This document shows, one piece after another, positions 41,421 to 57,743 of a DNA stretch of 64,000 nucleotides; position 1 is the first letter of the stretch, and each line of letters begins with the position of its first letter. The notes beneath the pieces are model-generated. The model was not told the origin of the DNA. It was given only the letters and a program-made list of their open reading frames with translations, and did no database searches. A program made the translations under genes and the position numbers. The stretch is from contig MOEB01000006.1 of assembly GCA_001939945.1 (NCBI GenBank), positions 30,934-94,933 on the forward strand, written 5' to 3'. This DNA is from Aerophototrophica crusticola (lineage in GTDB: Bacteria; Pseudomonadota; Alphaproteobacteria; Azospirillales; Azospirillaceae).

Positions 41421-41529
41421 CGGACTCTCGGGCTAATCAAGGGGGAAGGGGTGGGGGTTTATAGACCCGTTGCCCACCCCGCAACAACTGCCGATCCCTT
41501 TGCCCGTGCAGGCCGGGAAGGAGCCACTC

Positions 41530-42291
41530 ATGCGCGACCCGCGCTGCATCCTGATCACCGGCGGGTCCAGCGGCATCGGCGCCGCCCTGGCCCGGCTCTA
41601 TGCCGCCCCGGGCACCCGCCTGCTCCTCACCGGCCGCGACCCCGCCCGCCTTGCCGCCGTGGCTGCCGACTGCGCGGGGCAGGGGGCGGCGGTGGAGACG
41701 ACCACCACCGACGTCACCGACCGCGACGCCCTGGCAGCATGGTTGCTGGCCCAGGACGATTCAGGCCCCATCGACCTCGTCCTCGCCAACGCGGGCATCT
41801 CCGCCGGCACCGGCGGCGGGGTGGAGACGGAGGCCCAGGCGAGGGCCGTCTTCGCCACCAACTTGGACGGCGTGATGAACACCATCCACCCCCTTATCCC
41901 CCGCATGCAGGCGCGGCGGCGGGGGCAACTCGGCCTCATGGCATCCCTCGCCGGCTTCCGCGGCCTGCCCGGCGCCCCGGCCTATTGCGCCTCCAAGGCC
42001 GCGGTGCGGGTGTATGGGGAGGCGTTGCGCGCCGACCTCGCCCCCCATGGCGTGGGCGTCAGCGTCATCTGCCCGGGCTTCGTCCGCACGCCCATGACGG
42101 ACGTGAACCGCTTCCCCATGCCCTTCCTGATGGACGCGGACCGCGCCGCCCGGATCATCCGGCGGGGGCTGGAGCGCGACCGCGCCCGCATCGCCTTCCC
42201 CTTCGGCACCTACCTGGTGAGCTGGCTGCTCGGCACCCTGCCGCCCCTGCTCATCGACCCTTTCCTGGCCGCGCTGCCCCGGAAGGGCTGA
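41530..42291 (+). CDS. short-chain dehydrogenase/reductase
   Basis: 253 residues from an ATG with AAGGAG upstream. Classical SDR: ITGGSSGIGAALARL cofactor loop, LANAG, YCASKAAVRVYGEAL with catalytic Tyr/Lys. A hydrophobic C-terminus (TYLVSWLLGTLPPLLIDPFL) suggests membrane association. Substrate unknown. Confidence 0.87.
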   Translation: MRDPRCILITGGSSGIGAALARLYAAPGTRLLLTGRDPARLAAVAADCAGQGAAVETTTTDVTDRDALAAWLLAQDDSGPIDLVLANAGISAGTGGGVETEAQARAVFATNLDGVMNTIHPLIPRMQARRRGQLGLMASLAGFRGLPGAPAYCASKAAVRVYGEALRADLAPHGVGVSVICPGFVRTPMTDVNRFPMPFLMDADRAARIIRRGLERDRARIAFPFGTYLVSWLLGTLPPLLIDPFLAALPRKG

Positions 42292-42355
42292 GGCCCAAAC
42301 GGAAACGCCGGGAAGGACCCCTTCCCGGCGCCATCCGCAACCCGTGTGACCCGAC

Positions 42356-42958
42356 TCAGGCCTTGGTATAGCCCCACACGCTGGCCGGCGGGATGTTGGC
42401 CATGGTGAAGCCCACCCGGCGGCCATGCAGCCCCAGCGGCTTGCGCTTCAGGGGCGAGCGGGCGGAATAGGTATAGGCCAGGAACTGCCGCCCCTCCGGC
42501 ATGACCTTGAAGATCTCTTCCACGATCTTCCGCTGGGCGTCCACCGGGATCAGGATCATGGGGATGCCCACGACGACGGTGCCGACCTTGCCGATGAACT
42601 GGCTGGGGATCAGCTTCTGCACGTCGGTGACGTTGCCCTCGATCACGTTGACCTCGGGGAAGTGCTGGCGCAGGTAGGCGGCCAGCTCCGGGTCCAGCTC
42701 GATGGTGTACAGGCGCGACGGCGGCACGCCGTTTTCCAACAGCGCCTTGGTGATGGCGCCCGTGCCGCCGCCGAACTCCACCACGATCTCATCCGGGTCG
42801 CGGCGGACCTTGCTGGCGATCAGGTTGGACAGGGCGGGGGACGAAGGCGTGATCGACGCCATGGCAAGGGGGTTGGCCATCCAGCGCTTGAAGAACAGCC
42901 AGGCGGGGTGGGGGGCCTTCCTGGTGGTGGAGGTGGCCTCGGCGCGGTCAAGCGGCAT
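42356..42958 (-). CDS. PmtA-like phospholipid N-methyltransferase / rRNA-adenine-dimethylase-fold protein
   Basis: 200 residues. It starts with FFKRWMANPLAMASITPSSPAL and has the SAM motif VVEFGGGTGAITKALLENG and IELDPELAAYLRQ. This matches the alphaproteobacterial PmtA type, which methylates phosphatidylethanolamine, though KsgA-fold relatives share these motifs. Monocistronic, convergent with the SDR. Confidence 0.75.
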   Translation of the reverse strand: MPLDRAEATSTTRKAPHPAWLFFKRWMANPLAMASITPSSPALSNLIASKVRRDPDEIVVEFGGGTGAITKALLENGVPPSRLYTIELDPELAAYLRQHFPEVNVIEGNVTDVQKLIPSQFIGKVGTVVVGIPMILIPVDAQRKIVEEIFKVMPEGRQFLAYTYSARSPLKRKPLGLHGRRVGFTMANIPPASVWGYTKA

Positions 42959-43191
42959 CGGGGGTTTCGTCCCTGGTGTCGGTTGCGAAAACGGGTGACG
43001 GGAGAAATGGCACGCGGGCGGCAGCTTTGCAATCGTCGGGGCTGGCGCACGGTCTGCATACGGGCCCTGTCGCCAAACCCCTAACCCCGCGTCCGGGTTC
43101 CCCGCAAGCGCATTGGAAGTACCGGGAAGGGTACCACCTGCCACGCCCCGGGGAATCCCGCCACGAAGCCCCGGTCGCGGGGCGTCCCGGG

Positions 43192-43953
43192 TCAGGGGCT
43201 GACGGTGGTGTCGAAGGCCTGGCTCCGGTCCTGCCGGGTCATCACCGCCCGCAGCCCCGCCGCGCTCCCGGACAGCGCCAGCGTGCCCAGCGTATAAGTG
43301 CCGCAGGGCCCGCCATTGCTGTTGGTCGGCGTCAGCACCAGCGCGCCGGATGCCGCGGGGCCGGAGAATTCCAGCTCGTTGCGGCAGGACTCGGGCGCGG
43401 CGAACTCCACGGTCCCGGCCGGCTTGCCCAATCCCGCGGGCTTCACCGTCAGGGTGAAGGGGATGGTGGCGCCGTTCTGCTTGCGGTAGCTGCCCTTGTA
43501 GGTCCCCGCCACGGCGGCGGTGGAGGCGGTGCCGTCGCCGGCGGTGAGCGTCGCCACGGGACCCGGCTTGCCGTTCACCTGCGCCAGGGCCACCTGCAGC
43601 GCCCCGCCCGTCCCGGCGGTGGCGGTCAGGCTCCCCAGGGCATACGGGGCGCACTTGCCCCCGTTGGAGCTTCCAAGGGCGAAGCGGGTCGCCCCGCCCT
43701 CCGCCGCCGCCAGTGTGAGGGGGAGCTTGCACTGGTAGGGCTGGCCGAACCGGACCTCCCCCGCCGCCCGCCCCGGCTGGGCGGCTGCCAGTTCCAGCAC
43801 CACGGGCACCGGCCGCCCGTCCTGGTCCGTCGTGCCCGACCAGCGCCCGGCCAGGTCGGCGGCCCCCGCCGCGCACAGGGCGGGGATGCCCAGGCTCGCC
43901 AGGCCAGCCAACAGCATGCGGCCCGCAAGGCCGCGCCCATGTCCGATCCTCAT
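43192..43953 (-). CDS. hypothetical exported beta-rich protein of the DUF2589 operon
   Basis: 253 residues from an ATG with GGGGAG upstream. Signal peptide (LLAGLASLGIPALCAAGA, about 13-31). The mature part has two to three imperfect units with a pattern G.W.G.......IPF.L.L........G.....P..C: ADLAGRWSGTTDQDGRPVPV, GTYKGSYRKQNGATIPFTL and ELEFSGP. Cys residues occur in matched positions of each unit. Last gene of a six-gene minus-strand run; function unknown. Confidence 0.65.
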   Translation of the reverse strand: MRIGHGRGLAGRMLLAGLASLGIPALCAAGAADLAGRWSGTTDQDGRPVPVVLELAAAQPGRAAGEVRFGQPYQCKLPLTLAAAEGGATRFALGSSNGGKCAPYALGSLTATAGTGGALQVALAQVNGKPGPVATLTAGDGTASTAAVAGTYKGSYRKQNGATIPFTLTVKPAGLGKPAGTVEFAAPESCRNELEFSGPAASGALVLTPTNSNGGPCGTYTLGTLALSGSAAGLRAVMTRQDRSQAFDTTVSP

Positions 43954-43991
43954 GTTTCTCCCCTCGCATTCGGCCGTTCTCGGCCCGTTGT

Positions 43992-44303
43992 TCATGGGTT
44001 CGCCAGCACCGCCAGGGCGCGCATGACCGCTCCCAGGATCGCGTCGCGCGCCTCGGGCAGGGACAGGACCAGCGCCAGGGGGATGGCAAGGGACAGGCCG
44101 GCGGCCAGCAGCTTCGGCCACAGGGGCGGGCGGGCCGGCGGCGGTGGCGGTTCCTCGGCGGCGGATTCGGCCAGGATGGCGCGCAGGGTATCCTGCTCCT
44201 CCCGGCTCAGGGACAGCAGGATCCCCTCATTCCTCGGCGGGCGGAGCCGCCCCATCAGCCCGGCCAGCAGGCTTGATCCCGAAGACGCGGAGAAGGCGGT
44301 CAT
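43992..44303 (-). CDS. small single-pass membrane protein of the DUF2589 operon
   Basis: 103 residues if started at 44303, overlapping the previous gene by 77 bases; an internal Met at 44255 is an alternative. Cytoplasmic N-terminal part with GILLSLSREEQDTLRAILAES, a Pro-rich linker (EEPPPPPARPP) and one helix (LLAAGLSLAIPLALVLSL) near the C-terminus. I do not recognise a family; it could tether the complex to the membrane. Confidence 0.55.
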   Translation of the reverse strand: MTAFSASSGSSLLAGLMGRLRPPRNEGILLSLSREEQDTLRAILAESAAEEPPPPPARPPLWPKLLAAGLSLAIPLALVLSLPEARDAILGAVMRALAVLANP

Positions 44304-44742
44304 TCAGCCGCACCTCCGCCTGCTCGAAGCGGGGCCCGAAGATGGTGACGACCAGCTTGTGCAGCTTGGAGGCGGCGCGCGGCGGCACGCCGATGCGCAG
44401 GCGCAGGTCGGGCGGCGGGGCCAGCATCCCAGGCCGGCGTGGCGGCTGGGGGGCGGGGACCTCTTCCACCACGGCGGTGGTCTCGATCCGCAGCTCGGTG
44501 ACCCGCGTCTCGGTCAGGGTGTGCAGCGAGGCGAACGGGATCTGGACCGTCCGCGCGGGCTGCCCGCCCCGTCCCGGGATCTCGACCTTCAGGCTCCATG
44601 TCTCCGCCTCGACGTCGCTGTTCCCGTTGAGCTGCAGGTTGCGCACGACACGGCCGCGTTCGGACGCCGACAGGGCATCCTGGGCAAGGCCGGCCGCCGT
44701 CTGCAGCCTGAGGACCAGATCGTCAAGGCTGATGGCCGCCAT
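44227..44742 (-). CDS. DUF2589-operon protein, beta-sandwich-like
   Basis: 171 residues, no signal peptide. After a helical start (LDDLVLRLQTAAGLAQDAL) comes IPFASLHTLTETRVTELRIETTAVVEE, the same layout as the core motif of the other two large proteins of the operon (IP-L--L------I----I-F). A Pro-rich hinge then leads to LVVTIFGPRFEQAEVRLNDRLLRVFGI. Likely a diverged paralogue; function unknown. Confidence 0.65.
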   Translation of the reverse strand: MAAISLDDLVLRLQTAAGLAQDALSASERGRVVRNLQLNGNSDVEAETWSLKVEIPGRGGQPARTVQIPFASLHTLTETRVTELRIETTAVVEEVPAPQPPRRPGMLAPPPDLRLRIGVPPRAASKLHKLVVTIFGPRFEQAEVRLNDRLLRVFGIKPAGRADGAAPPAEE

Positions 44743-44769
44743 GTGACTGCGGTGCTCCCAGTGAAGGGT

Positions 44770-45024
44770 TCATTCAAGCCAATAAGGCTTCCGCGGGAAT
44801 CCCACATGGTAGACAACGCATTGCAAGACGACCTGGTGCTCGCCGATGTTCAGGATCGAGAAATTTTTCTCGACCCCGATGATCCGTCCCTTGGGCGAGT
44901 CTGACAGGCAGCGGTTCAGCAGGTCCGCCGCCGCCTGCACCTCTTCCTCCGTCGCCATCCTCTCCGGGTTGGTACTGCCCACGGTGATGCGCTTGACGAA
45001 TCCGACATCGGTCAGGTCGAACAT
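44770..45024 (-). CDS. small DUF2589-operon protein
   Basis: 84 residues, cytoplasmic, mixed alpha/beta. VEKNFSILNIGEHQVVLQCVVYHVGFP near the end is beta-rich. Located 27 bases before the next gene and 88 bases after the DUF2589 gene. No family recognised. Confidence 0.6.
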   Translation of the reverse strand: MFDLTDVGFVKRITVGSTNPERMATEEEVQAAADLLNRCLSDSPKGRIIGVEKNFSILNIGEHQVVLQCVVYHVGFPRKPYWLE

Positions 45025-45112
45025 CGTGCGCTTGCCTCGGCGGACGGAAGCGGGCCGGACAGGCCCAGGGGGAAGGGGCCCCGGGCCGTCGCCGGCCCGG
45101 GGGTATGGGCCA

Positions 45113-45730
45113 TCACGTCTTCGGCGGGGTGATGGTCTTCGGCGCGATGGACTGGTTCATCATGTCCAGCACGCGGGCCAGGCCCTCGGGCATGCCCTTG
45201 TCCTCGGCCTTCACGATCACCGTGTACTTGGCGGAGCTGTCGGTCTGCCGCTGCGTCTCCTTGGAGCTGGAGACGGAGCCGGAGATCTTCACGCTGCCGG
45301 ACACGGGGCCCCAGCCGAACTTGGCCTCCAGCTCGCCCTTGGCCTCGCTGGCGCTCTTCTCGGTGGTGGTCTCGCTGTTCTTCACCTCCATGTTGAAGGT
45401 GATGTCCACGGTGTTGATCGCCAGGGACGGGATCTTCACCACGGCCAGCAGCGGAACCTCCAGCTCCACCGTCTCCATGCTCGGGGCCGTGTTCGGGTCG
45501 GTGGCCACGGCGGTGGAGGGGCGGTTGAACTTGAAGGACACGGTCCGCACATCGCCCACGGCGTTGGCGTCGGCCTTGCTGGGGTCGGCAGGCGGGTTGA
45601 AGCCCACCACCTTGATGAAATTCGCCGTGGCGGTGGCCAGGCGCACCTGGGCGTCACAGGCGGCCATCAGCGGACCGCCGATGAGGTCGCCCATGGGAAG
45701 GCCGCGGAACTGATCAGCAATCGCTGCCAT
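45113..45730 (-). CDS. DUF2589 domain protein
   Basis: 205 residues, no signal peptide. The start FRGLPMGDLIGGPLMAACDAQ and the body (VRTVSFKFNRP; ELEVPLLAVVKIPSLAINTV; GWGPVSGSVKISGSVSSSKE) match the DUF2589 pattern of pseudomonads and shewanellas as I remember it. It is predicted beta-rich with an amphipathic helical start. No function has been assigned to the family that I know of. It heads a same-strand run of small genes with its paralogue just upstream. Confidence 0.8.
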   Translation of the reverse strand: MAAIADQFRGLPMGDLIGGPLMAACDAQVRLATATANFIKVVGFNPPADPSKADANAVGDVRTVSFKFNRPSTAVATDPNTAPSMETVELEVPLLAVVKIPSLAINTVDITFNMEVKNSETTTEKSASEAKGELEAKFGWGPVSGSVKISGSVSSSKETQRQTDSSAKYTVIVKAEDKGMPEGLARVLDMMNQSIAPKTITPPKT

Positions 45731-45757
45731 GCTTCAAACTCCCGGTTAAGTCCGCAT

Positions 45758-46297
45758 TCAGATCAATTTGTCGAGTTGCTGGATCAGCCTGGCCATCCCG
45801 TCGGACGGGGGCTGGCTCTCGACCTTCAGGGTGACCTTGGCGATGGCGCCCGGCCCCCGGCTCCTGCTCCCGCCGACATCGACGCCGAGCACGCGCTGCA
45901 GCCCGACGCCCCGCCAGCCCGACCCATCGTCGTCCGGGGCGCCGGAATCGCTCTTGTCCTGTGGTTTGCCGTCCTTGGCATCCTTCGCGCCCGCGCCCTT
46001 GGGCGGGTCGTCGTCATCGATGCCGGTCAGCCCGATCTCGAAATTGATCTCGGCCGCCTTGATGGACAGCAGTTGCGGCCCGACCAGCGACAGCAGGGGC
46101 ACGCGGACGATCCGCTCCTCCCCCTCCTCGGCGTCCGGCGACAGGGATGGCATCCGGACGTCCACCGCCTTGGGGCGGTTGTTCTCGTCGAAATAGTCGC
46201 TGACCGTCGAAAGCTGGAAACGATGAATCTTGTCCTGCGCCTCGGCCACCGCGTTGGCGATGGCCTGGATGAGGTGATGCAGTCCCAGGTTGGCCAC
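45758..46297 (-). CDS. DUF2589-like paralogue, first gene of the operon
   Basis: 179 residues. The helical start HHLIQAIANAVAEAQDKIH is followed by IVRVPLLSLVGPQLLSIKAAEINFEIGLTGID, aligned in layout with the VPLLAVV...IPSLAINTVDITF segment of the next gene. Then comes an Asp/Lys-rich linker and AIAKVTLKVESQPPSDGMARLIQQLDKLI, also mirrored in the neighbour (MPEGLARVLDMMN). Twenty-seven bases separate the two. Likely a duplicate subunit. Confidence 0.7.
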   Translation of the reverse strand: MANLGLHHLIQAIANAVAEAQDKIHRFQLSTVSDYFDENNRPKAVDVRMPSLSPDAEEGEERIVRVPLLSLVGPQLLSIKAAEINFEIGLTGIDDDDPPKGAGAKDAKDGKPQDKSDSGAPDDDGSGWRGVGLQRVLGVDVGGSRSRGPGAIAKVTLKVESQPPSDGMARLIQQLDKLI

Positions 46298-46939
46298 GAC
46301 TCGTCCCCTGCTGTCCCGGACGGGTTACTACCGCGGACGCAGTTCTATCACTGCCTATAACCGATGGAAAGTCAGAAGCCGAAAAGAGCGCACTTAAAGA
46401 ACCTTATTAAGCATATGACAATGCTGTGATCCGTCGCTTTTCATCTTTCGTTGCGCGATGCTATCGGCTTGACAACCACTTGTACCAGCCAAAGCGAGCA
46501 ACTTCCTGGCTGACGCCAGAGGCCCAAGCACCGCACCAAGTTGCCGAAGTGGTTCTTCTTAGGAGTGCGTCAATATCCAATTGCCCACCACACCCCAACC
46601 GGCACTGGATGCATGGGTTTCGGAGGCGGGTGGGAACACAGATGAAAACAGATTTAAAATGATGACCACACATAACAAAAATGAATGAGCTATTAAGAAA
46701 TCAGGCAACCTACTGATTATGATAGGAGTAAACGCATTTCGGTGAACCGGGGCTATCAATATTGACTGTGTTCATCCGTGTCTCGAGAACACCCAGTCCG
46801 GAATGGCCGACCGTAGGTTTGCGCCGCACTGATCCCGATCCTGGGTCGTCTACGCCGGAAGACCCGTGCATCCCTGGGCAAGAGAGGGATACCCAAGCAG
46901 CGGCCTGCTTTGCCTTGTCGGGTAGGGGCCGTCACTCCG
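46298..46939. other. 642-base gap without a convincing gene, A/T-rich
   Basis: The first part should hold the promoter of the DUF2589 operon (minus strand; a weak TTATAG box around 46357). The middle (46380-46770) is clearly A/T-rich and has only short open frames without coding character. It contains ACACAGATGAAAACAGAT and, at 46761, TGTTCATCCGTGTCT, wording also seen near 59280. No structured RNA was recognised. Confidence 0.6.
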
Positions 46940-47443
46940 TCACTGGAGCCGCGGCCCGTTCTCACGGTCCAGCAAGGCCTCGTACCGCCTCACCGTGGCC
47001 CGCATTTCCTCAAGCAGTTGGCGCTGCTCGTCAGCCGCCGCACGGGCCTCTTCCGCGTCGGTACGGGCGCGCTCGGCATACAGCCGGGCCGCCTCGGCAG
47101 ACTTTCGGGCATCCTCGCCCATGATGCGCGCCCGCTCCTCGGCTTGGCGCGCCTCTTCCGCCGCAAGCCGCGCGCTCTCGGCGAACCGGCGCTGGTCTTC
47201 GGCTTCCAGGCGCTGTGTTTCGCCGGTGACCCGCCCCTCCTCGGCGATCAGGCGGCTTCCTTCAGCCGCCTCCAGCCGCGCGAAGGCCGCCGCCCTGGCC
47301 TGCTCGGCCTCGGCCCGGTCCTGTTCGGCGGAAATGCGGTCCTGTTCGGCATGGGACCGCCGAAGCTCACCGCGCCGCCGGATTTCCTCGGCATCCACCC
47401 TGCGCTCCTCGGCATCGTCCATGGGGCGACGTGACGGGTCCAT
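46940..47443 (-). CDS. long coiled-coil protein
   Basis: 167 residues from the ATG at 47443 (a TTG two codons earlier is possible). Almost the whole chain is a single Ala/Glu/Arg-rich helix with repeats such as AEQDRISAEQDRAEAEQARA and RLAAEEARQAEERA, strongly predictive of a coiled coil. No membrane segment. Function cannot be inferred; it is separate from the DUF2589 operon by the gap above. Confidence 0.6.
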   Translation of the reverse strand: MDPSRRPMDDAEERRVDAEEIRRRGELRRSHAEQDRISAEQDRAEAEQARAAAFARLEAAEGSRLIAEEGRVTGETQRLEAEDQRRFAESARLAAEEARQAEERARIMGEDARKSAEAARLYAERARTDAEEARAAADEQRQLLEEMRATVRRYEALLDRENGPRLQ

Positions 47444-47560
47444 GGCCAATTCCCCAGGCTTTCCGTGTCAATCGTCCACGGAAAGCTTACGGCATCCCGG
47501 CACACGCGGCACAGGAAAAGGTCATCCTACTCCCATCGGCGAACACCGGCCGCAGCGGGA

Positions 47561-49462
47561 TCACGCCGTCAGCTCGGCTTCCATCCGCTCCAGCTCCTCG
47601 GACAGCTCCAGCCACTGCATCTCAAGCTCTTCCAGCTCGCGCCCCAGGGTGCCCAGCTCCTTCTGCGCCGCGGCCACGTCGGCCTTGGCGCCCTGGTAGA
47701 AGGCCGGGTCGGCCATGCGGGCCTCCAGGGCGTTCTTCTTCTTGGTGACGGCGGCCATCTGCTTCTCCACCGCCTCCACCTTCTTCTTCAGCGGGGCGAG
47801 CTGGGCGCGCACCTCTGCCGCCGCCCGGCGTTCGTCCTTGCGGGCGTCGCGGCCACGGGCCGGGGGGTCGGCTTGCTTCTCCGCCCGGGATTCCGCCCGC
47901 GCCTTGTCCAGCAGCAGGCGCTTGTACTCCTCCAGGTCGCCGTCGAAGGGCTTGGCCGTGCCGTCCGCCACCAGCCACAGCCGGTCGGCCGTCAGCTCGA
48001 TCAGGTGGGGGTCGTGGCTGATGACGATCACCGCCCCCTCATAGCCGTTCAGCGCCTCCACCAGCGCCTCGCGGCTGTCAATGTCCAAATGGTTGGTGGG
48101 CTCGTCCAGCATCAGGATGTGCGGCGCGTCCCGGGTCATCATGGCCAGCAGCAGCTTGGCCTTCTCCCCGCCTGACAGGGACCCGATCTTGGTCTCCGCC
48201 TTCTGCTGCGCCAGCCCGAACCGGCCAAGGTGCGCGCGCACCGCCGTCTCATGGGTGTTGGGCGGCATGATGGACGCCATCTGTTGGATGGGCGTCCAGT
48301 CCAGGTTCAGCTCGTCCGCCTGGTGCTGGGCGAAGTACCCGACCTTCAGCTTGGAGGACCGGCGGAACTCCCCGGCCATGGGGGCCAGCCGCCCGGCCAG
48401 CAGCTTGACCAGGGTGGACTTGCCGTTGCCGTTGGCGCCCAGCAGGGCGATGCGGTCGTCCGCGTCGATGCGCAGGTTCAGCTTCCTCAGGACCGCCCGG
48501 CCGTCATAGCCGATGGTCACGTCGTCCACCGCGATCAGCGGCGGGGCCAGCTCTTCCGGCGATGGGAAGTTGAAGCTGGTGGCGCTGTCCTCGATCACCT
48601 CGATGCGCGGCCCCAGCCGCTCCAGCGCCTTGATGCGGCTCTGGGCCTGGCGGGCCTTGGTGGCCTTGGCGCGAAACCGGTCCACGAAGCTTTGCAGGTG
48701 CTTGCGTTGCAATTCCTGCTTCACCGCGGCGGACTTCATCTGTTCCAGCTTGGCTGCCCGCTGCTTCACGAACTGGTCGTAGTTGCCGCTGTAGGAGGTC
48801 AGCTTCAACTGGTCCAGGTGGATGATGGTGGTGGGGACCTTGTTCAGCAGTTCCCGGTCATGGCTGACGATCATCACCGTGTGCGGGTAGGCCCGCAGGT
48901 AATCCTCCAGCCACAGGGTGGCTTCCAGGTCCAGGTGGTTGGTCGGTTCGTCCAGCAGCAGCAGGTCCGGCTCGGCGAACAGCACGCCGGCCAGGGCCAC
49001 GCGCATGCGCCAGCCGCCGGAAAAGTCGCTGCACGGCCGCCGCTGCGCCTCCGCGTCGAATCCCAGCCCGTGCAGGATGCGCGCCGCCCGCGCCTCCGCC
49101 GCATGGGCGCCGATGTCCGCCAGCCGCGCGTGGATCTCCCCGATGCGGGCCGGGTCGGTGGCCGTCTCCGCCTCCGCCAGCAGGGACGTGCGCTCCTGGT
49201 CGGCGGCCAGCACCGTGTCGATCAGGCTGGTGGCCCCGGCGGGCACCTCCTGCCGCACCCAGCCCATCTTCAGGCCGGCGGGCAGGCTGATGCTGCCCTC
49301 ATCCTGGTGCAGCTCCCCCGCGATCAGCTTCAGCAGGGTGGACTTGCCCGTCCCATTGCGCCCCACCAACGCCACCCGATGCCCGGCCGGCACGGTGACG
49401 GAGGCACGGTCCAACAGCACGCGGCCGGCGATACGGAAAGTGAGGTCGGTGATCTGCAGCAT
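47561..49462 (-). CDS. ABC-F family ATPase
   Basis: 633 residues from the ATG at 49462. Two ABC domains: Walker A GRNGTGKSTLLK and GANGNGKSTLVK, signatures CSDFSGGWRMRVALA and GSLSGGEKAKLLLA, and Walker B LLLDEPTNHLD in both. There is an ABC-F linker between them and a C-terminal coiled coil (KKKVEAVEKQMAAVTKKKNAL). No membrane domain, so it acts on ribosomes; YheS-like rather than an exporter. Confidence 0.92.
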   Translation of the reverse strand: MLQITDLTFRIAGRVLLDRASVTVPAGHRVALVGRNGTGKSTLLKLIAGELHQDEGSISLPAGLKMGWVRQEVPAGATSLIDTVLAADQERTSLLAEAETATDPARIGEIHARLADIGAHAAEARAARILHGLGFDAEAQRRPCSDFSGGWRMRVALAGVLFAEPDLLLLDEPTNHLDLEATLWLEDYLRAYPHTVMIVSHDRELLNKVPTTIIHLDQLKLTSYSGNYDQFVKQRAAKLEQMKSAAVKQELQRKHLQSFVDRFRAKATKARQAQSRIKALERLGPRIEVIEDSATSFNFPSPEELAPPLIAVDDVTIGYDGRAVLRKLNLRIDADDRIALLGANGNGKSTLVKLLAGRLAPMAGEFRRSSKLKVGYFAQHQADELNLDWTPIQQMASIMPPNTHETAVRAHLGRFGLAQQKAETKIGSLSGGEKAKLLLAMMTRDAPHILMLDEPTNHLDIDSREALVEALNGYEGAVIVISHDPHLIELTADRLWLVADGTAKPFDGDLEEYKRLLLDKARAESRAEKQADPPARGRDARKDERRAAAEVRAQLAPLKKKVEAVEKQMAAVTKKKNALEARMADPAFYQGAKADVAAAQKELGTLGRELEELEMQWLELSEELERMEAELTA

Positions 49463-49502
49463 GGCGGGGGATGTAGCACAGCCGCGCCAAGGGCAGAAGC
49501 GG

Positions 49503-49705
49503 CCGTTACCGTTCCCTCTCCCTGGGGAGAGGGTGCCTTGCGCAGCGAGGCGTGAGGGAGGTGGGAGCAGCACTACCCACCCCCTCTCCCCCCGGGGGAG
49601 AGGGTTGGGGTGAGGGGGCCGGGTTCCTCGAGACGCTTCGGTCCCTACGCCCACCTCCCTCACCCGGCGCTACCGCGCCACCCTCTCCCCAAGGAGAGGG
49701 AACAA
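49503..49705. repeat. CCCTCTCC-type palindromic repeat cluster
   Basis: Three hairpins: CCCTCTCCCTGGGGAGAGGG (near 49514), CCCTCTCCCCCCGGGGGAGAGGG (near 49581) and ACCCTCTCCCCAAGGAGAGGG (near 49680), linked by GTGAGGGAGGTGGG-like spacers in both orientations. Same family as the element inside the GNAT gene. Confidence 0.75.
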
Positions 49706-49727
49706 TACCGCCGAACAGGCACCCAAG

Positions 49728-49800
49728 GCCCGCGACCGCGGGCCCGCGGGCCCATGCCCGCGCAAGCCAAGCCCGCGGAGCGGGCGCCCGGCGCCTGAGG
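49728..49800 (+). repeat. AAGCCAAGCC-core palindromic repeat, copy E
   Basis: CCCGCGACCGCGGG, GGGCCCATGCCCGCG, the core CAAGCCAAGCC, CCGCGGAGCGGG and GCCCGGCGCCTGA follow in the same order as in the other copies; the terminal hairpin is weak here. Confidence 0.7.
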
Positions 49801-49859
49801 GCGCGCGCACGCGCACATCTGGCCCGCGCGTTCGGCGATGCGGTGGCGTAGGATTGGCG

Positions 49860-54973: not shown

Positions 54974-55354
54974 CTAACCTCCACACCCCCCGTACCGCAC
55001 CACGTCCCCCGCCATCGGCGGCAGCATCAGCGCCGTCACCGCGCCCCCATCCTGCGCCCGTTCCACCTGGACCAGCACCATGGTCCGCGCCGGCCGCCCC
55101 TTGTTGGCCCGCTCGATGGCCTGTTCCAGCAGGGCCCGCCGGCAGTCCGCCGACCCCTCCGGCGGCGGGTTGCGCAGCCGCACCGTGTCCTCCAGCACCG
55201 CCCCCGGCCAAGGATACGCCCGCACCGCCAGCGTCTCCCCATCCACCACCCGCAGCACCGCCACGGTCACCGGCCCTTGGGTCTGCGCCAACGGGTTCGC
55301 CCCCGCCGCCCCGGCCACCAGCCCCAAGGCCACCCCCACCAACACCTTCCGCAT
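54974..55354 (-). CDS. small exported protein resembling a staphylococcal-nuclease-fold fragment
   Basis: 126 residues from an ATG with GGGAGGGG upstream. Signal peptide (VLVGVALGLVAGAAGANPLA). The mature start VAVLRVVDGETLAVRAYPWPGAVLEDTVRLRN has the layout of thermonucleases (V--V-DGDTL-V....W-G...V-LR). The catalytic Arg/Glu region is missing and the chain is about half length. Probably a degenerate relative or a specificity module, not an active nuclease. Confidence 0.6.
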   Translation of the reverse strand: MRKVLVGVALGLVAGAAGANPLAQTQGPVTVAVLRVVDGETLAVRAYPWPGAVLEDTVRLRNPPPEGSADCRRALLEQAIERANKGRPARTMVLVQVERAQDGGAVTALMLPPMAGDVVRYGGCGG

Positions 55355-55435
55355 GGCCCCTCCCGCCAAGTCATATGACCCTGTAGGATCACCCCACCAT
55401 CCCCAGGGCAGGGAGGGGAGGGGGTGCCAGCAGAT

Positions 55436-55452
55436 TCACAATCAGATTGTGA
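55436..55452. promoter_or_regulatory. palindromic operator upstream of the XRE gene
   Basis: TCACAATC-A-GATTGTGA: a perfect 8-bp inverted repeat around one base, 57 bases before the XRE start. The size and position fit a binding site for the dimeric XRE regulator itself. Confidence 0.55.
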
Positions 55453-55508
55453 GTGCTTGCCACGGCCAATGCACAGAAACTCCCGGCTGCCTCCTTATCG
55501 TAGCGGCC

Positions 55509-55856
55509 ATGGATAAGGAGCTTCGCCAGCATCTCGGCCGGGTCGTGCGCGAAAACCGCAAGCGCCTGGGCCTCTCCCAAGAGCAGCTTGGGCAGATGAT
55601 CGGCCGGGCGTCTCACAACACGATTTCAAATATCGAGCGGGGGCGGACTGTGCCGTCGCTCTATCGGCTGTCAGCACTGTCGAAGGTGCTGGGGGTGCCG
55701 CTTTGGAAATTTGTAACGGTGGAAAATCTGGTACCTGCTACCAAAGCAGCAAACGAATATGAATACAAAATTATAGAAAACTTTTCTCGTTTGACAGAAA
55801 AAGATCAGCGGCGCCTATCGGAGATAGTCGCCGCATTTTCTAATGACCTGCATTGA
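55509..55856 (+). CDS. XRE-family transcriptional regulator of the accessory island
   Basis: 115 residues from the ATG at 55509. Helix-turn-helix at about 10-62: LGRVVRENRKRLGLSQEQLG, then GRASHNTISNIERGRTVPSL. The C-terminal helix (YKIIENFSRLTEKDQRRL) is for dimerisation. Codons become A/T-rich from residue 75 on, marking the island. Convergent with the defence genes; it may control them. Confidence 0.85.
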   Translation: MDKELRQHLGRVVRENRKRLGLSQEQLGQMIGRASHNTISNIERGRTVPSLYRLSALSKVLGVPLWKFVTVENLVPATKAANEYEYKIIENFSRLTEKDQRRLSEIVAAFSNDLH

Positions 55857-56168: not shown

Positions 56169-57743
56169 TCAGGGCTGCGACGTTTTGGACTCCATCTCGC
56201 GCAGCTGTTTTACAATCTGCGCTTCGTAGATTGTAAAACTATCCAGATGTGGTCTGTAGATTGGCTCCTGTCGCTTGCGGTCAAAGAGGATCACTTTGCC
56301 ACTCTGTTTCCTTTCAATACGGGAGTTAAAAAGTTTGAGAATATTCTTTGGTGCAACTCCCTCGTACTGGCGGAAGATCACCTGAGTGGCAGAGTTTCGC
56401 TCATCTGAAGATATTGTATCTTCATGAAGTGAGTCGGCAAGACTTTTGGGATAAGGTTCTATGTAATAAACCTCTCGGATGCCGCTGACTACGATATGTC
56501 TGGCGCAATTGTGGCAGGGGTATGTTGTCGTGTATAGAATGCTATCGAGTATAGATTTGCCACCGTTCCGCGCAACGCTTATGATTGCCTCCATTTCGGC
56601 ATGGATGGATCTGCTGTATTCAATGATGGACGATAGTTCGGTTTCTTTCAGAGCTTTTCTTATTGGGGTGATATCGGTTCCCTTCTTGATAACTCTTTTA
56701 TCCAATAATTTTGCAATGATATTATCGATCAGATTAGCTTTTCGTTCGTCATTATGACACAGGCCTTGCTTCCATTTGAAGCAGCGTGCATCCAAAAAAT
56801 CCTTTTCCTTTAGTGGCTCCTCATACAATCCCCCGCCAAATTTTGGAACATCATTCCATCCGACTGCTAGCAAATCGCCAGATTTGCTGACAATTGCTGC
56901 GCCAACTTGACGAGACATGCACCCAGACTTAGCTGCAACAGATGCTGCTTTGAACATAGCTGCTTCGTGTCTGTTTGGTGTGTGAATTGTACCGTGAAAA
57001 ATGATATCTAGGAATCGAAGAACTGTATCTTCGAGAGGCTTCTCGGTATCATGTTCGTTTCGGATGAAATAATCCGACTCAGAGAATATTTTTCTAACTT
57101 TCTGCCCTTCTTCTAAATTTTCTCCTTGGTCGCGCTCCATTATTTTTTCCGCTTCTGATTTGGACATTGTTTTCGTGAGGCGCTTCAAGCGAACAAACTC
57201 CGGAGCAAACACACCAACACACCAAAACATCTCTCCATAAACCTCTTGGAATAACCTTAGCTCAGCCGGGTGTTTGATAGAGTCGACCAAGTATGCACGC
57301 CGAATCGGAACCGGGACTGACGTATCCCCGGAAGGGGTGGAGACTTTTCTAAAGCCATTGTTTGTTTTTCTTTGTACGGCTATCTCATCAATTACTAACT
57401 TGGCTAGAATGTCACTGCTAAAACGTGCACGCAAAGTATTGCCGGTGGATTGCAAATGCTCAATTCGCTTCGCCCCCTTCATGTCATGAGAGGCGCTCAT
57501 GCTTACTCTGCTGGACCATTTGTTGATTAAAGAACTCACACGAATTGGTTCAGGAACTTCGTATCCGAACTCCTTTTCTAAAATGCGTCTAAAGGCATTT
57601 ACTGTAGTCGTAACGCCTGATGCTACGGGGCCAATGAAGCCAATCACCAATTCTGGCGTCCTACGTTCAAATACTGAGTCTGCCTGCTCTGATGAGGTCT
57701 CGGCAGTTTCAACCTTGCCAATTACAGCTTGGAGCAGGGACAT
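56169..57743 (-). CDS. anti-phage deoxycytidylate/dCTP deaminase, AvcD-like
   Basis: 524 residues. N-terminal P-loop kinase-like domain: GFIGPVASGVTTT (35-47) is a Walker A-like loop, and SDYFIRNEHD (222-231) fits the later nucleotide-kinase motif. C-terminal zinc deaminase: GCMSRQVGAAIVSKSGD (274-290), SIHAEMEAI (H381, E383 catalytic) and TYPCHNCARH (C410, C413). This two-domain layout is that of AvcD and related defence dCTP deaminases, which destroy dC nucleotides during phage infection. The gene is A/T-rich and lies in an island with an XRE regulator. It has its own promoter with a consensus -35. Confidence 0.85.
   Translation of the reverse strand: MSLLQAVIGKVETAETSSEQADSVFERRTPELVIGFIGPVASGVTTTVNAFRRILEKEFGYEVPEPIRVSSLINKWSSRVSMSASHDMKGAKRIEHLQSTGNTLRARFSSDILAKLVIDEIAVQRKTNNGFRKVSTPSGDTSVPVPIRRAYLVDSIKHPAELRLFQEVYGEMFWCVGVFAPEFVRLKRLTKTMSKSEAEKIMERDQGENLEEGQKVRKIFSESDYFIRNEHDTEKPLEDTVLRFLDIIFHGTIHTPNRHEAAMFKAASVAAKSGCMSRQVGAAIVSKSGDLLAVGWNDVPKFGGGLYEEPLKEKDFLDARCFKWKQGLCHNDERKANLIDNIIAKLLDKRVIKKGTDITPIRKALKETELSSIIEYSRSIHAEMEAIISVARNGGKSILDSILYTTTYPCHNCARHIVVSGIREVYYIEPYPKSLADSLHEDTISSDERNSATQVIFRQYEGVAPKNILKLFNSRIERKQSGKVILFDRKRQEPIYRPHLDSFTIYEAQIVKQLREMESKTSQP

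What the first reader, a model, noticed from the sequence alone, without database searches (positions are those of the whole stretch)
43192..46297. Six-gene operon built on DUF2589-type proteins
Three of the six proteins (45758-46297, 45113-45730, 44227-44742) share the layout [IV]P[LF][LA][SA]-...-L.I....I.F, which suggests paralogous subunits of one assembly. They are joined by an 84-residue protein, a single-pass membrane protein and an exported repeat protein. DUF2589 has no assigned function that I know. The mixture of cytosolic paralogues, a membrane tether and an exported protein suggests a structural or secretion-like apparatus.
Basis: partly seen in the sequence, partly recalled or inferred. 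Interest (0 to 1): 0.7.

Follow-up and report, generated by a model that had tools for sequence, protein, structure and literature searches.

The report
DUF2589 operon linked to wall lysis
A small group of related bacterial proteins of unknown function travels as a fixed gene set through very different bacteria, usually beside a cell-wall-cutting enzyme and sometimes a hole-forming protein or a toxin, which suggests an undescribed way of opening the cell envelope or releasing proteins; the copy in this window is an extra insert in its genome and has no such enzyme beside it.

Summary
Window 43192-46297 (minus strand) carries six adjacent genes, P1-P6. P1, P2 and P4 are homologous (P4 to P2 only through P1), P5 has one membrane segment, P6 looks exported and has two repeats. 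They sit in a 4.47-kb insert absent at the same site in all ten sister genomes.

In 80 related loci, P2, P1 and P3 occur in 80, 78 and 77. P4, P5 and P6 are frequent additions; four P4 proteins carry the P5-like membrane segment themselves.

New clue: linkage to cell-wall hydrolysis. 52 of 80 loci carry a phage-type endolysin without apparent signal peptide, all on the module's strand, 51 within 4 kb; six more carry GH25 and three an MltF-like enzyme. Twelve add a phage-type holin, seven an EndoU nuclease.

Best reading: a host-encoded, lysis-cassette-like (type-10-secretion-like) release or envelope-opening module with a new protein core. The mechanism is inferred. The window genome has no GH19 or GH108 gene, so this copy lacks the usual partner. 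I found no function for DUF2589 in print.

The parts
45758..46297 (-). P1, small DUF2589 protein, 179 aa, GTG start
   Evidence: Pfam PF11655 3.6e-20; family in 78 of 80 loci
45113..45730 (-). P2, main DUF2589 protein, 205 aa; helix, strands and a long beta hairpin predicted with low confidence
   Evidence: Pfam PF11655 7e-41; 80 of 80 loci (it was the query); 35 invariant positions in 53 sequences; model pLDDT 66
44770..45024 (-). P3, 84-aa protein, predicted beta-alpha-beta-beta, no Pfam family
   Evidence: 77 of 80 loci; model pLDDT 91.9; no Pfam match
44227..44742 (-). P4, third, divergent DUF2589-like protein, 171 aa
   Evidence: hhalign to P1 98.5%; leave-out profile 2.9e-14; Pfam only 0.19
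43992..44303 (-). P5, 103 aa, one membrane segment near residue 65
   Evidence: hydropathy scan; L012 counterpart; equivalent segment fused to P4 in L078, L086, L088, L089
43192..43953 (-). P6, 253 aa, signal-peptide-like start, two repeats of about 100 aa each with a Cys pair
   Evidence: repeat test; family in 31 of 80 loci
46940..47440 (-). P7, 166 aa, Ala/Glu/Arg-rich coiled-coil-like protein inside the insert; not part of the conserved module
   Evidence: no homologue in the 13 first relative loci searched; PHROG matches of low-complexity kind
43103..47574 (.). 4,472-bp insert relative to the sister genome L177
   Evidence: L177 aligns window 41528-43102 and 47575-49481 with 141 bp between

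Best explanation
P1-P6 are the core of a widespread, patchily distributed, host-encoded module that works together with cell-wall lysis. P1, P2 and P4 (DUF2589 paralogues) and P3 form a cytosolic heteromer that P4-P5 docks at the inner membrane; P6 acts in the periplasm. In most relatives a cytosolic phage-type endolysin encoded beside it, in some with a holin, opens the wall, and folded cargo without an ordinary export route (the DUF2589 complex itself and linked enzymes such as the EndoU nuclease or phospholipases) is released, as in type 10 secretion. Shown: the gene set, the homology, the linkage to endolysins without signal peptides and to holins, the insertion. Inferred: the complex, its docking, and the release. 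The window copy has no linked endolysin, so it either relies on an unlinked hydrolase or has another use.
For: P2/P1/P3 in 80/78/77 of 80 loci. Endolysin families in 52 of 80 loci, 52 of 52 on the module's strand, 51 within 4 kb and one at 4.1 kb, although far flanks make up 482,229 of 1,081,123 flanking bases. None of the 52 shows a signal or membrane segment by a hydropathy scan. PHROGs call five tested enzymes from different families endolysins (GH108, two GH19 forms, PF11860, amidase; a sixth, L119, likewise). Six Cyclobacterium loci have GH25 next to the core; three Vibrio/Aliivibrio loci a divergent SLT+SBP_bac_3 enzyme. Few copies elsewhere: 20 GH108 copies in 14 genomes, 17 beside a module (adjacency from coordinates); six GH25 copies in six Cyclobacterium genomes, all beside it. 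Holin family in 12 of 80 loci, all with GH108. EndoU nuclease plus small partner gene in 7 of 80. LuxR-, response-regulator- and AraC-type proteins upstream.
Against: The window copy and its L012 counterpart have no recognised endolysin beside them, and their genomes have no GH19 or GH108. 19 of 80 loci showed no peptidoglycan hydrolase that I recognised. Holins are in only 12 of 80; spanins were not searched for. The genomes were chosen because the enzyme lies beside the module, and GH19 also has 18 of 34 copies elsewhere. Loci of one genus are not independent. DUF2589-related genes occur in Archaeoglobus (PMC3949148, one passage), an archaeon that has no peptidoglycan (recalled). Other neighbours are lipases, proteases and nucleases, which fits the effector rival as well.
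Confidence: 0.4

Rival explanations
1. Effector carrier: the DUF2589-P3 complex carries or loads toxic enzymes that act on rival cells; the endolysins are cargo, like the phospholipases, nucleases and proteases beside other copies.
For: Enzyme classes beside the core vary: endolysins, EndoU nuclease with a possible immunity protein in 7 loci, patatin in L096 and L158 and a Tle1-like phospholipase in L119, C58 peptidase in L106, nuclease-like protein in L095, GDSL lipase in L104, HNH protein in L117.
Against: 61 of 80 loci have a peptidoglycan hydrolase, and 12 have a holin, which a carrier would not need. Most of the other enzymes were seen in single loci. P6, the recurrent exported protein, occurs with GH19, GH108 and GH24 alike, so it is not an enzyme-specific immunity protein. 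No delivery machine was seen, though only the 25 commonest neighbour families were listed.
Confidence: 0.25
2. P2 is a membrane-inserting beta-hairpin protein that with P1, P3 and P4-P5 forms the hole through which the cytosolic endolysin reaches the wall, i.e. it takes the place of a holin.
For: Endolysins without signal peptides need a way through the membrane; 40 of the 52 loci have no recognised holin. P2 is predicted with a very long hairpin whose tip alternates hydrophobic and polar residues on both strands in 53 relatives.
Against: The hairpin tip has pLDDT below 50; an ordinary core strand of P2 (around residue 112) alternates even more strongly, so the pattern is not specific. Matches to pore stems (lysenin, iota toxin, CDTb, anthrax PA) have Z of only 2.0-2.6. 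At least 9 of the 12 holin-bearing loci also have the module and a P5-like protein, so the holin does not replace them.
Confidence: 0.12
3. The DUF2589 module is a cytosolic or membrane-bound assembly with no role in lysis; the hydrolases sit beside it because both are accessory genes in the same variable regions.
For: The window copy and L012 have no linked endolysin; 19 of 80 loci show none; Archaeoglobus has DUF2589-related genes.
Against: The linkage is close, strand-consistent, involves several unrelated enzyme families in different lineages, and often the genome's only or nearly only copy.
Confidence: 0.13

Closest known systems
Type 10 secretion systems (host holin/endolysin/spanin cassettes: Serratia ChiWXYZ, Yersinia YenLC, Salmonella TtsA)
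   Same: Host-encoded phage-type endolysin, in 12 of 80 loci with a holin, beside regulators and toxin-like genes; proteins without signal peptides (PMC10847048, passages; PMC13284979, abstract). That TtsA is a GH108 enzyme is recalled.
   Different: A conserved DUF2589 + P3 core that the passages and abstract I saw do not mention; holin in a minority; spanins not searched for; no endolysin beside the window copy.
Phage lysis cassettes
   Same: Endolysin and holin families are those of phages (PHROGs).
   Different: P2 relatives in 1 of 50,697 phage records, a 4-kb faecal fragment, plus one significant match in a library of viral protein models; P3 in none of the phage records.
DUF2589 (PF11655)
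   Same: P1 and P2 pass the Pfam cut-off.
   Different: The family has no assigned function; P4 falls below the cut-off.
Beta-barrel pore-forming toxins (stem hairpin)
   Same: Long hairpin with alternating residues in P2.
   Different: Low model confidence; Z 2.0-2.6 only; no signal peptide; not a membership claim.

Membership tests
DUF2589 (PF11655) | Score above Pfam's curated cut-off (23 bits): P1 and P2 | tested here: met
   73.3 and 140.6 bits
DUF2589 (PF11655) | Score above the cut-off: P4 | tested here: not met
   12.5 bits; homologous to P1 by profile comparison
Type 10 secretion system | Endolysin encoded in the cluster | tested here: not met
   Window: none recognised beside P1-P6; no GH19 or GH108 in the genome. 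Relatives: 52 of 80 loci
Type 10 secretion system | Holin encoded in the cluster | tested here: inconclusive
   Window: P5 has one membrane segment and no PHROG match of significance. Relatives: 12 of 80
Type 10 secretion system | Spanins | not tested
   No spanin search was made
Type 10 secretion system | Release of cargo proteins depends on the cluster | not testable with these tools
   Needs an experiment
Phage lysis cassette | Core genes carried by phages | tested here: not met
   P2: 1 of 50,697 phage records; P3: none
Type VI or other contractile injection system | Sheath, tube, spike or baseplate genes beside the module | tested here: inconclusive
   None among the 25 commonest families of 144 downstream and 79 upstream proteins; rarer families are not listed by the tool
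Beta-pore-forming protein (P2) | Fold match to a known pore-forming protein | tested here: inconclusive
   Best pore match lysenin Z 2.6 on a low-confidence hairpin

The most novel reading that the evidence does not exclude
Two or three DUF2589 proteins plus P3 are the core of an undescribed envelope-opening machine, unrelated in its core to holins, spanins or known secretion systems, that recruits interchangeable cytosolic endolysins from several unrelated families and releases or delivers toxic enzymes, in lineages from Proteobacteria to Bacteroidota, spirochaetes and Firmicutes.
Probability: 0.3. Interest if true: 0.85.

Novelty: new variant of a known kind. Interest (0 to 1): 0.62.

Why it matters
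DUF2589 has no assigned function. Its fixed partners and its linkage to swappable endolysins, holins and toxin-like enzymes give it a first testable one: lysis-coupled release or envelope opening. If true, host-encoded lysis cassettes would be commoner and more diverse than the known type 10 systems, and P2 and P3 would be the way into a new machine in many soil- and plant-associated bacteria.

Tried and rejected
Phage origin of the core: not supported, though one phage fragment and one viral protein model are related to P2. Anti-phage defence: no PADLOC match for P1-P4, P6, P7 (P5 was not given). Known fold for P3: best Z 5.0 (ribosomal S10 and Alba-like), no Foldseek match under E 0.001; told only as absence. 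Solved relatives of P1, P2 or P3 by sequence: none of significance. P6 as an enzyme-specific immunity protein: unlikely, it occurs with GH19, GH108 and GH24. P5 as a stand-in for the holin: weakened, at least 9 of 12 holin-bearing loci also have a P5-like protein. RNA elements: none in Rfam at 42900-47700; the leader fold is not unusual, z -0.35; one promoter-like site at 46746-46719 against 0.4 expected. Plasmids: P2 relatives in 4 of 72,556 records, not followed up. The extra protein of Burkholderiales loci matches the P4 profile only weakly (best 0.00048 of those tested) and is not counted as P4. L069 was first read as a P4-P5 fusion but shows no membrane segment in my scan, so 4 fusions are counted. 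L039's small protein, which I took for an M15 peptidase by eye, matched no Pfam family and is not counted.

Limits of the counts: the 80 loci are the best of 157 relatives confirmed by the scan, found through one P2 peptide pattern. Endolysin seeds were picked after seeing them beside the module, so the near/far comparison favours those families; the genome-wide counts are the better background but cover genomes chosen because they have the pair. For the Pfam tallies of neighbours I left out 24 near-duplicate loci of 80; 144 of 148 listed downstream proteins were scanned, and 79 of 141 listed upstream proteins, picked by hand, so the share of regulators may be inflated. Those tallies give counts of families, not which protein matched; that the GH24, PF11860 and Amidase_2 matches belong to the loci I name rests on the matching counts, on PHROGs for one or two of them and on my seeds. 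The name Amidase_3 for L119 and the name MltF for the SLT+SBP_bac_3 proteins are recalled. My gene calls in the loci are simple ORF choices, with many starts too far upstream.
Full report
The observation. The six genes are real and adjacent. P1 and P2 are DUF2589 by Pfam (3.6e-20, 7e-41), P4 only at 0.19; P3, P5 and P6 have no match of significance in Pfam, NCBIfam or PHROGs. Profile comparison links P1 with P2 (97.6%) and P4 with P1 (98.5%), but not P4 with P2 directly (5.1%). The P4 rows had been gathered by an iterative search that drifts into P1, so I repeated the test with a profile that left out the window and L012: it finds window P4 at 2.9e-14 and P1 at 3.8e-8, the best shuffled P4 reaching 9.3 bits against 52.2. 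The reverse search, P1 profile against window P4, does not exceed shuffles (5.4 vs 5.3 bits). One P4 with a membrane segment (L078) matches DUF2589 at 0.0011, still below the cut-off. P6 is two repeats.

An extra insert. DUF2589 is in 6 of 99 near genomes including the window's own and in none of the 10 others of its genus; in 9 of 398 genomes sampled from its phylum; and in 19 of 296 and 2 of 299 sampled around a Cyclobacterium and a Eubacterium genome; each count includes the centre. In all ten sister genomes the two genes that flank the operon lie on one contig with 141 to 342 bp between the matching pieces; five were read closely, and in L177 window 41528-43102 and 47575-49481 are 141 bp apart. 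So 4,472 bp with P1-P7 are extra here; gain is more likely than ten losses (inference). L012, from another genus of the family, has the same six genes in the same order.

Conserved core. One scan of named genomes confirmed 157 relatives of P2 and kept the best 80, from Pseudomonas, Azospirillum, Sphingomonas, Burkholderiales, Luteibacter, Xanthomonas, Desulfovibrio, Cyclobacterium, Vibrio, Brachyspira, Eubacterium and others. P2 is in 80, P1 in 78, P3 in 77, the P6 family in 31. P1 was not found in L053 and L111, P3 not in L053, L111 and L113. P4 was recognised in 17 loci, with shorter or weaker forms in Pseudomonas and Burkholderiales. In four of the 16 aligned P4 proteins (L078, L086, L088, L089) the end is a membrane segment, which ties P5 to P4. 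More distant relatives in Bacteroidota and elsewhere often have one DUF2589 protein followed by two other conserved proteins instead of P1 and P3.

Linkage to wall lysis. Reading the neighbourhoods showed phage-type lysozymes and amidases beside the core. A local search from nine seeds found them in 52 of 80 loci: GH19 25 (two forms), GH108 18, GH24 3, PF11860 muramidase 3, Amidase_2 2, an Amidase_3-like enzyme 1. All 52 are on the module's strand; 51 lie within 4 kb and one at 4.1 kb, with 598,894 bp of near and 482,229 bp of far flank. By a hydropathy scan none has a signal or membrane segment. Six Cyclobacterium loci have GH25 with a signal anchor next to the core (for L094, for the domain in all six genomes, for the starts), and three Vibrio/Aliivibrio loci a divergent SLT+SBP_bac_3 enzyme, as in MltF. 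That makes 61 of 80; in 19 I recognised none.

Background. The 14 genomes with GH108 hold 20 copies, 17 of them beside a module. Six Cyclobacterium genomes hold one GH25 each, the one beside the module. The 16 named genomes hold 34 GH19 genes, 16 beside a module and 18 elsewhere. Adjacency was worked out from coordinates. These genomes were chosen because they have the pair, so what counts is how few further copies there are; for GH19 there are many. Of nine further genomes, which include the window's, two have a GH19 match, one beside its module (G263) and one not (G134). In more distant relatives a patatin and an M15 peptidase (L158), a CHAP protein (L161), GH19 (L037) and a pesticin-type lysozyme (L038) occur nearby; these are 4 of 24 such loci looked at, without a systematic search.

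Holins, toxins, regulators. Ten Luteibacter loci, one Luteimonas and one Rhodanobacter locus have a holin-type protein (PHROG 2359, 3e-12 and 4.8e-13 for the two tested) and a second small membrane protein, always with GH108. Six Pseudomonas loci and L043 carry an EndoU-type nuclease (Pfam 1.2e-17 for L044) with a signal-peptide-like start, followed by a small protein that may be its immunity partner (inference; no Pfam match). L043 has no endolysin that I recognised. Other neighbours, mostly in single loci, are lipases, proteases and nucleases. Among 79 hand-picked upstream proteins, LuxR-, response-regulator- and AraC-type domains are in 10, 9 and 7.

Structure. P3 is predicted with confidence (pLDDT 91.9) as beta-alpha-beta-beta, with only generic fold matches (Z at most 5.0). 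P2 is predicted poorly (66): a 31-residue helix, short strands and a very long hairpin with its tip below 50. In the family the tip alternates hydrophobic and polar residues on both strands, but a core strand does so more strongly. This is compatible with a membrane-inserting hairpin and no more; matches to pore stems are too weak to count (Z 2.0-2.6).

Interpretation. Endolysins without signal peptides need help to reach the wall. Known host systems that pair them with holins are type 10 secretion systems, which release folded proteins by lysis (PMC10847048, passages) or, in Salmonella, reportedly without lysis (PMC13284979, abstract). The DUF2589 module resembles these in its enzymes and some neighbours, not in its core. 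I take it as a lysis-cassette-like release or envelope-opening system with a new core. Against applying this to the window: its copy has no endolysin beside it, and its genome and that of L012 have no GH19 or GH108. Other endolysin families were not searched in that genome; among 27 window genes scanned, the commonest families show one wall enzyme, a YceG-like protein, not beside the operon.

In print. The word DUF2589 is in one paper of the library, a transcriptome of Archaeoglobus that mentions related genes raised on lactate (passage). PF11655, pfam11655 and two phrases with DUF2589 are in none. Most subscription journals are not held, so earlier work cannot be excluded.

Noticed in passing
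window 56169-57743 (-), with 55080-55856 (+): Deaminase gene matching PADLOC's anti-phage dCTPase model (7.3e-163), with low third-position G+C (0.45), beside a gene with a Cro/C1-like repressor match: probably a defence gene in a small foreign island.
   Followed up: partly
window about 49509-49829: Short dispersed repeat: pieces of this stretch match many places in the window's own genome and in sister genomes, beside the ABC-F and nucleoside diphosphate kinase-like genes.
   Followed up: no
L169 6337-6632, L170 7062-7349, L171 7004-7294, L172 3786-4073: Stand-alone proteins of 95-98 aa (L169 runs off its contig) that hold only the N-terminal part of DUF2589, without P1 or P3 beside them.
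   Followed up: no
L154-L173, L036, L039: In many of these a DUF2589 protein is followed by two further conserved proteins of about 230 and 190 aa in place of P1 and P3; the two tested (L173) match no Pfam family.
   Followed up: partly
window 46250-46999: Stretch of 51-56% G+C upstream of P1 in a region of 64-76% G+C, inside the insert.
   Followed up: no
L044 11482-11748 and relatives: Small protein after the EndoU nuclease, kept in 7 loci, no Pfam match: a candidate immunity protein.
   Followed up: partly
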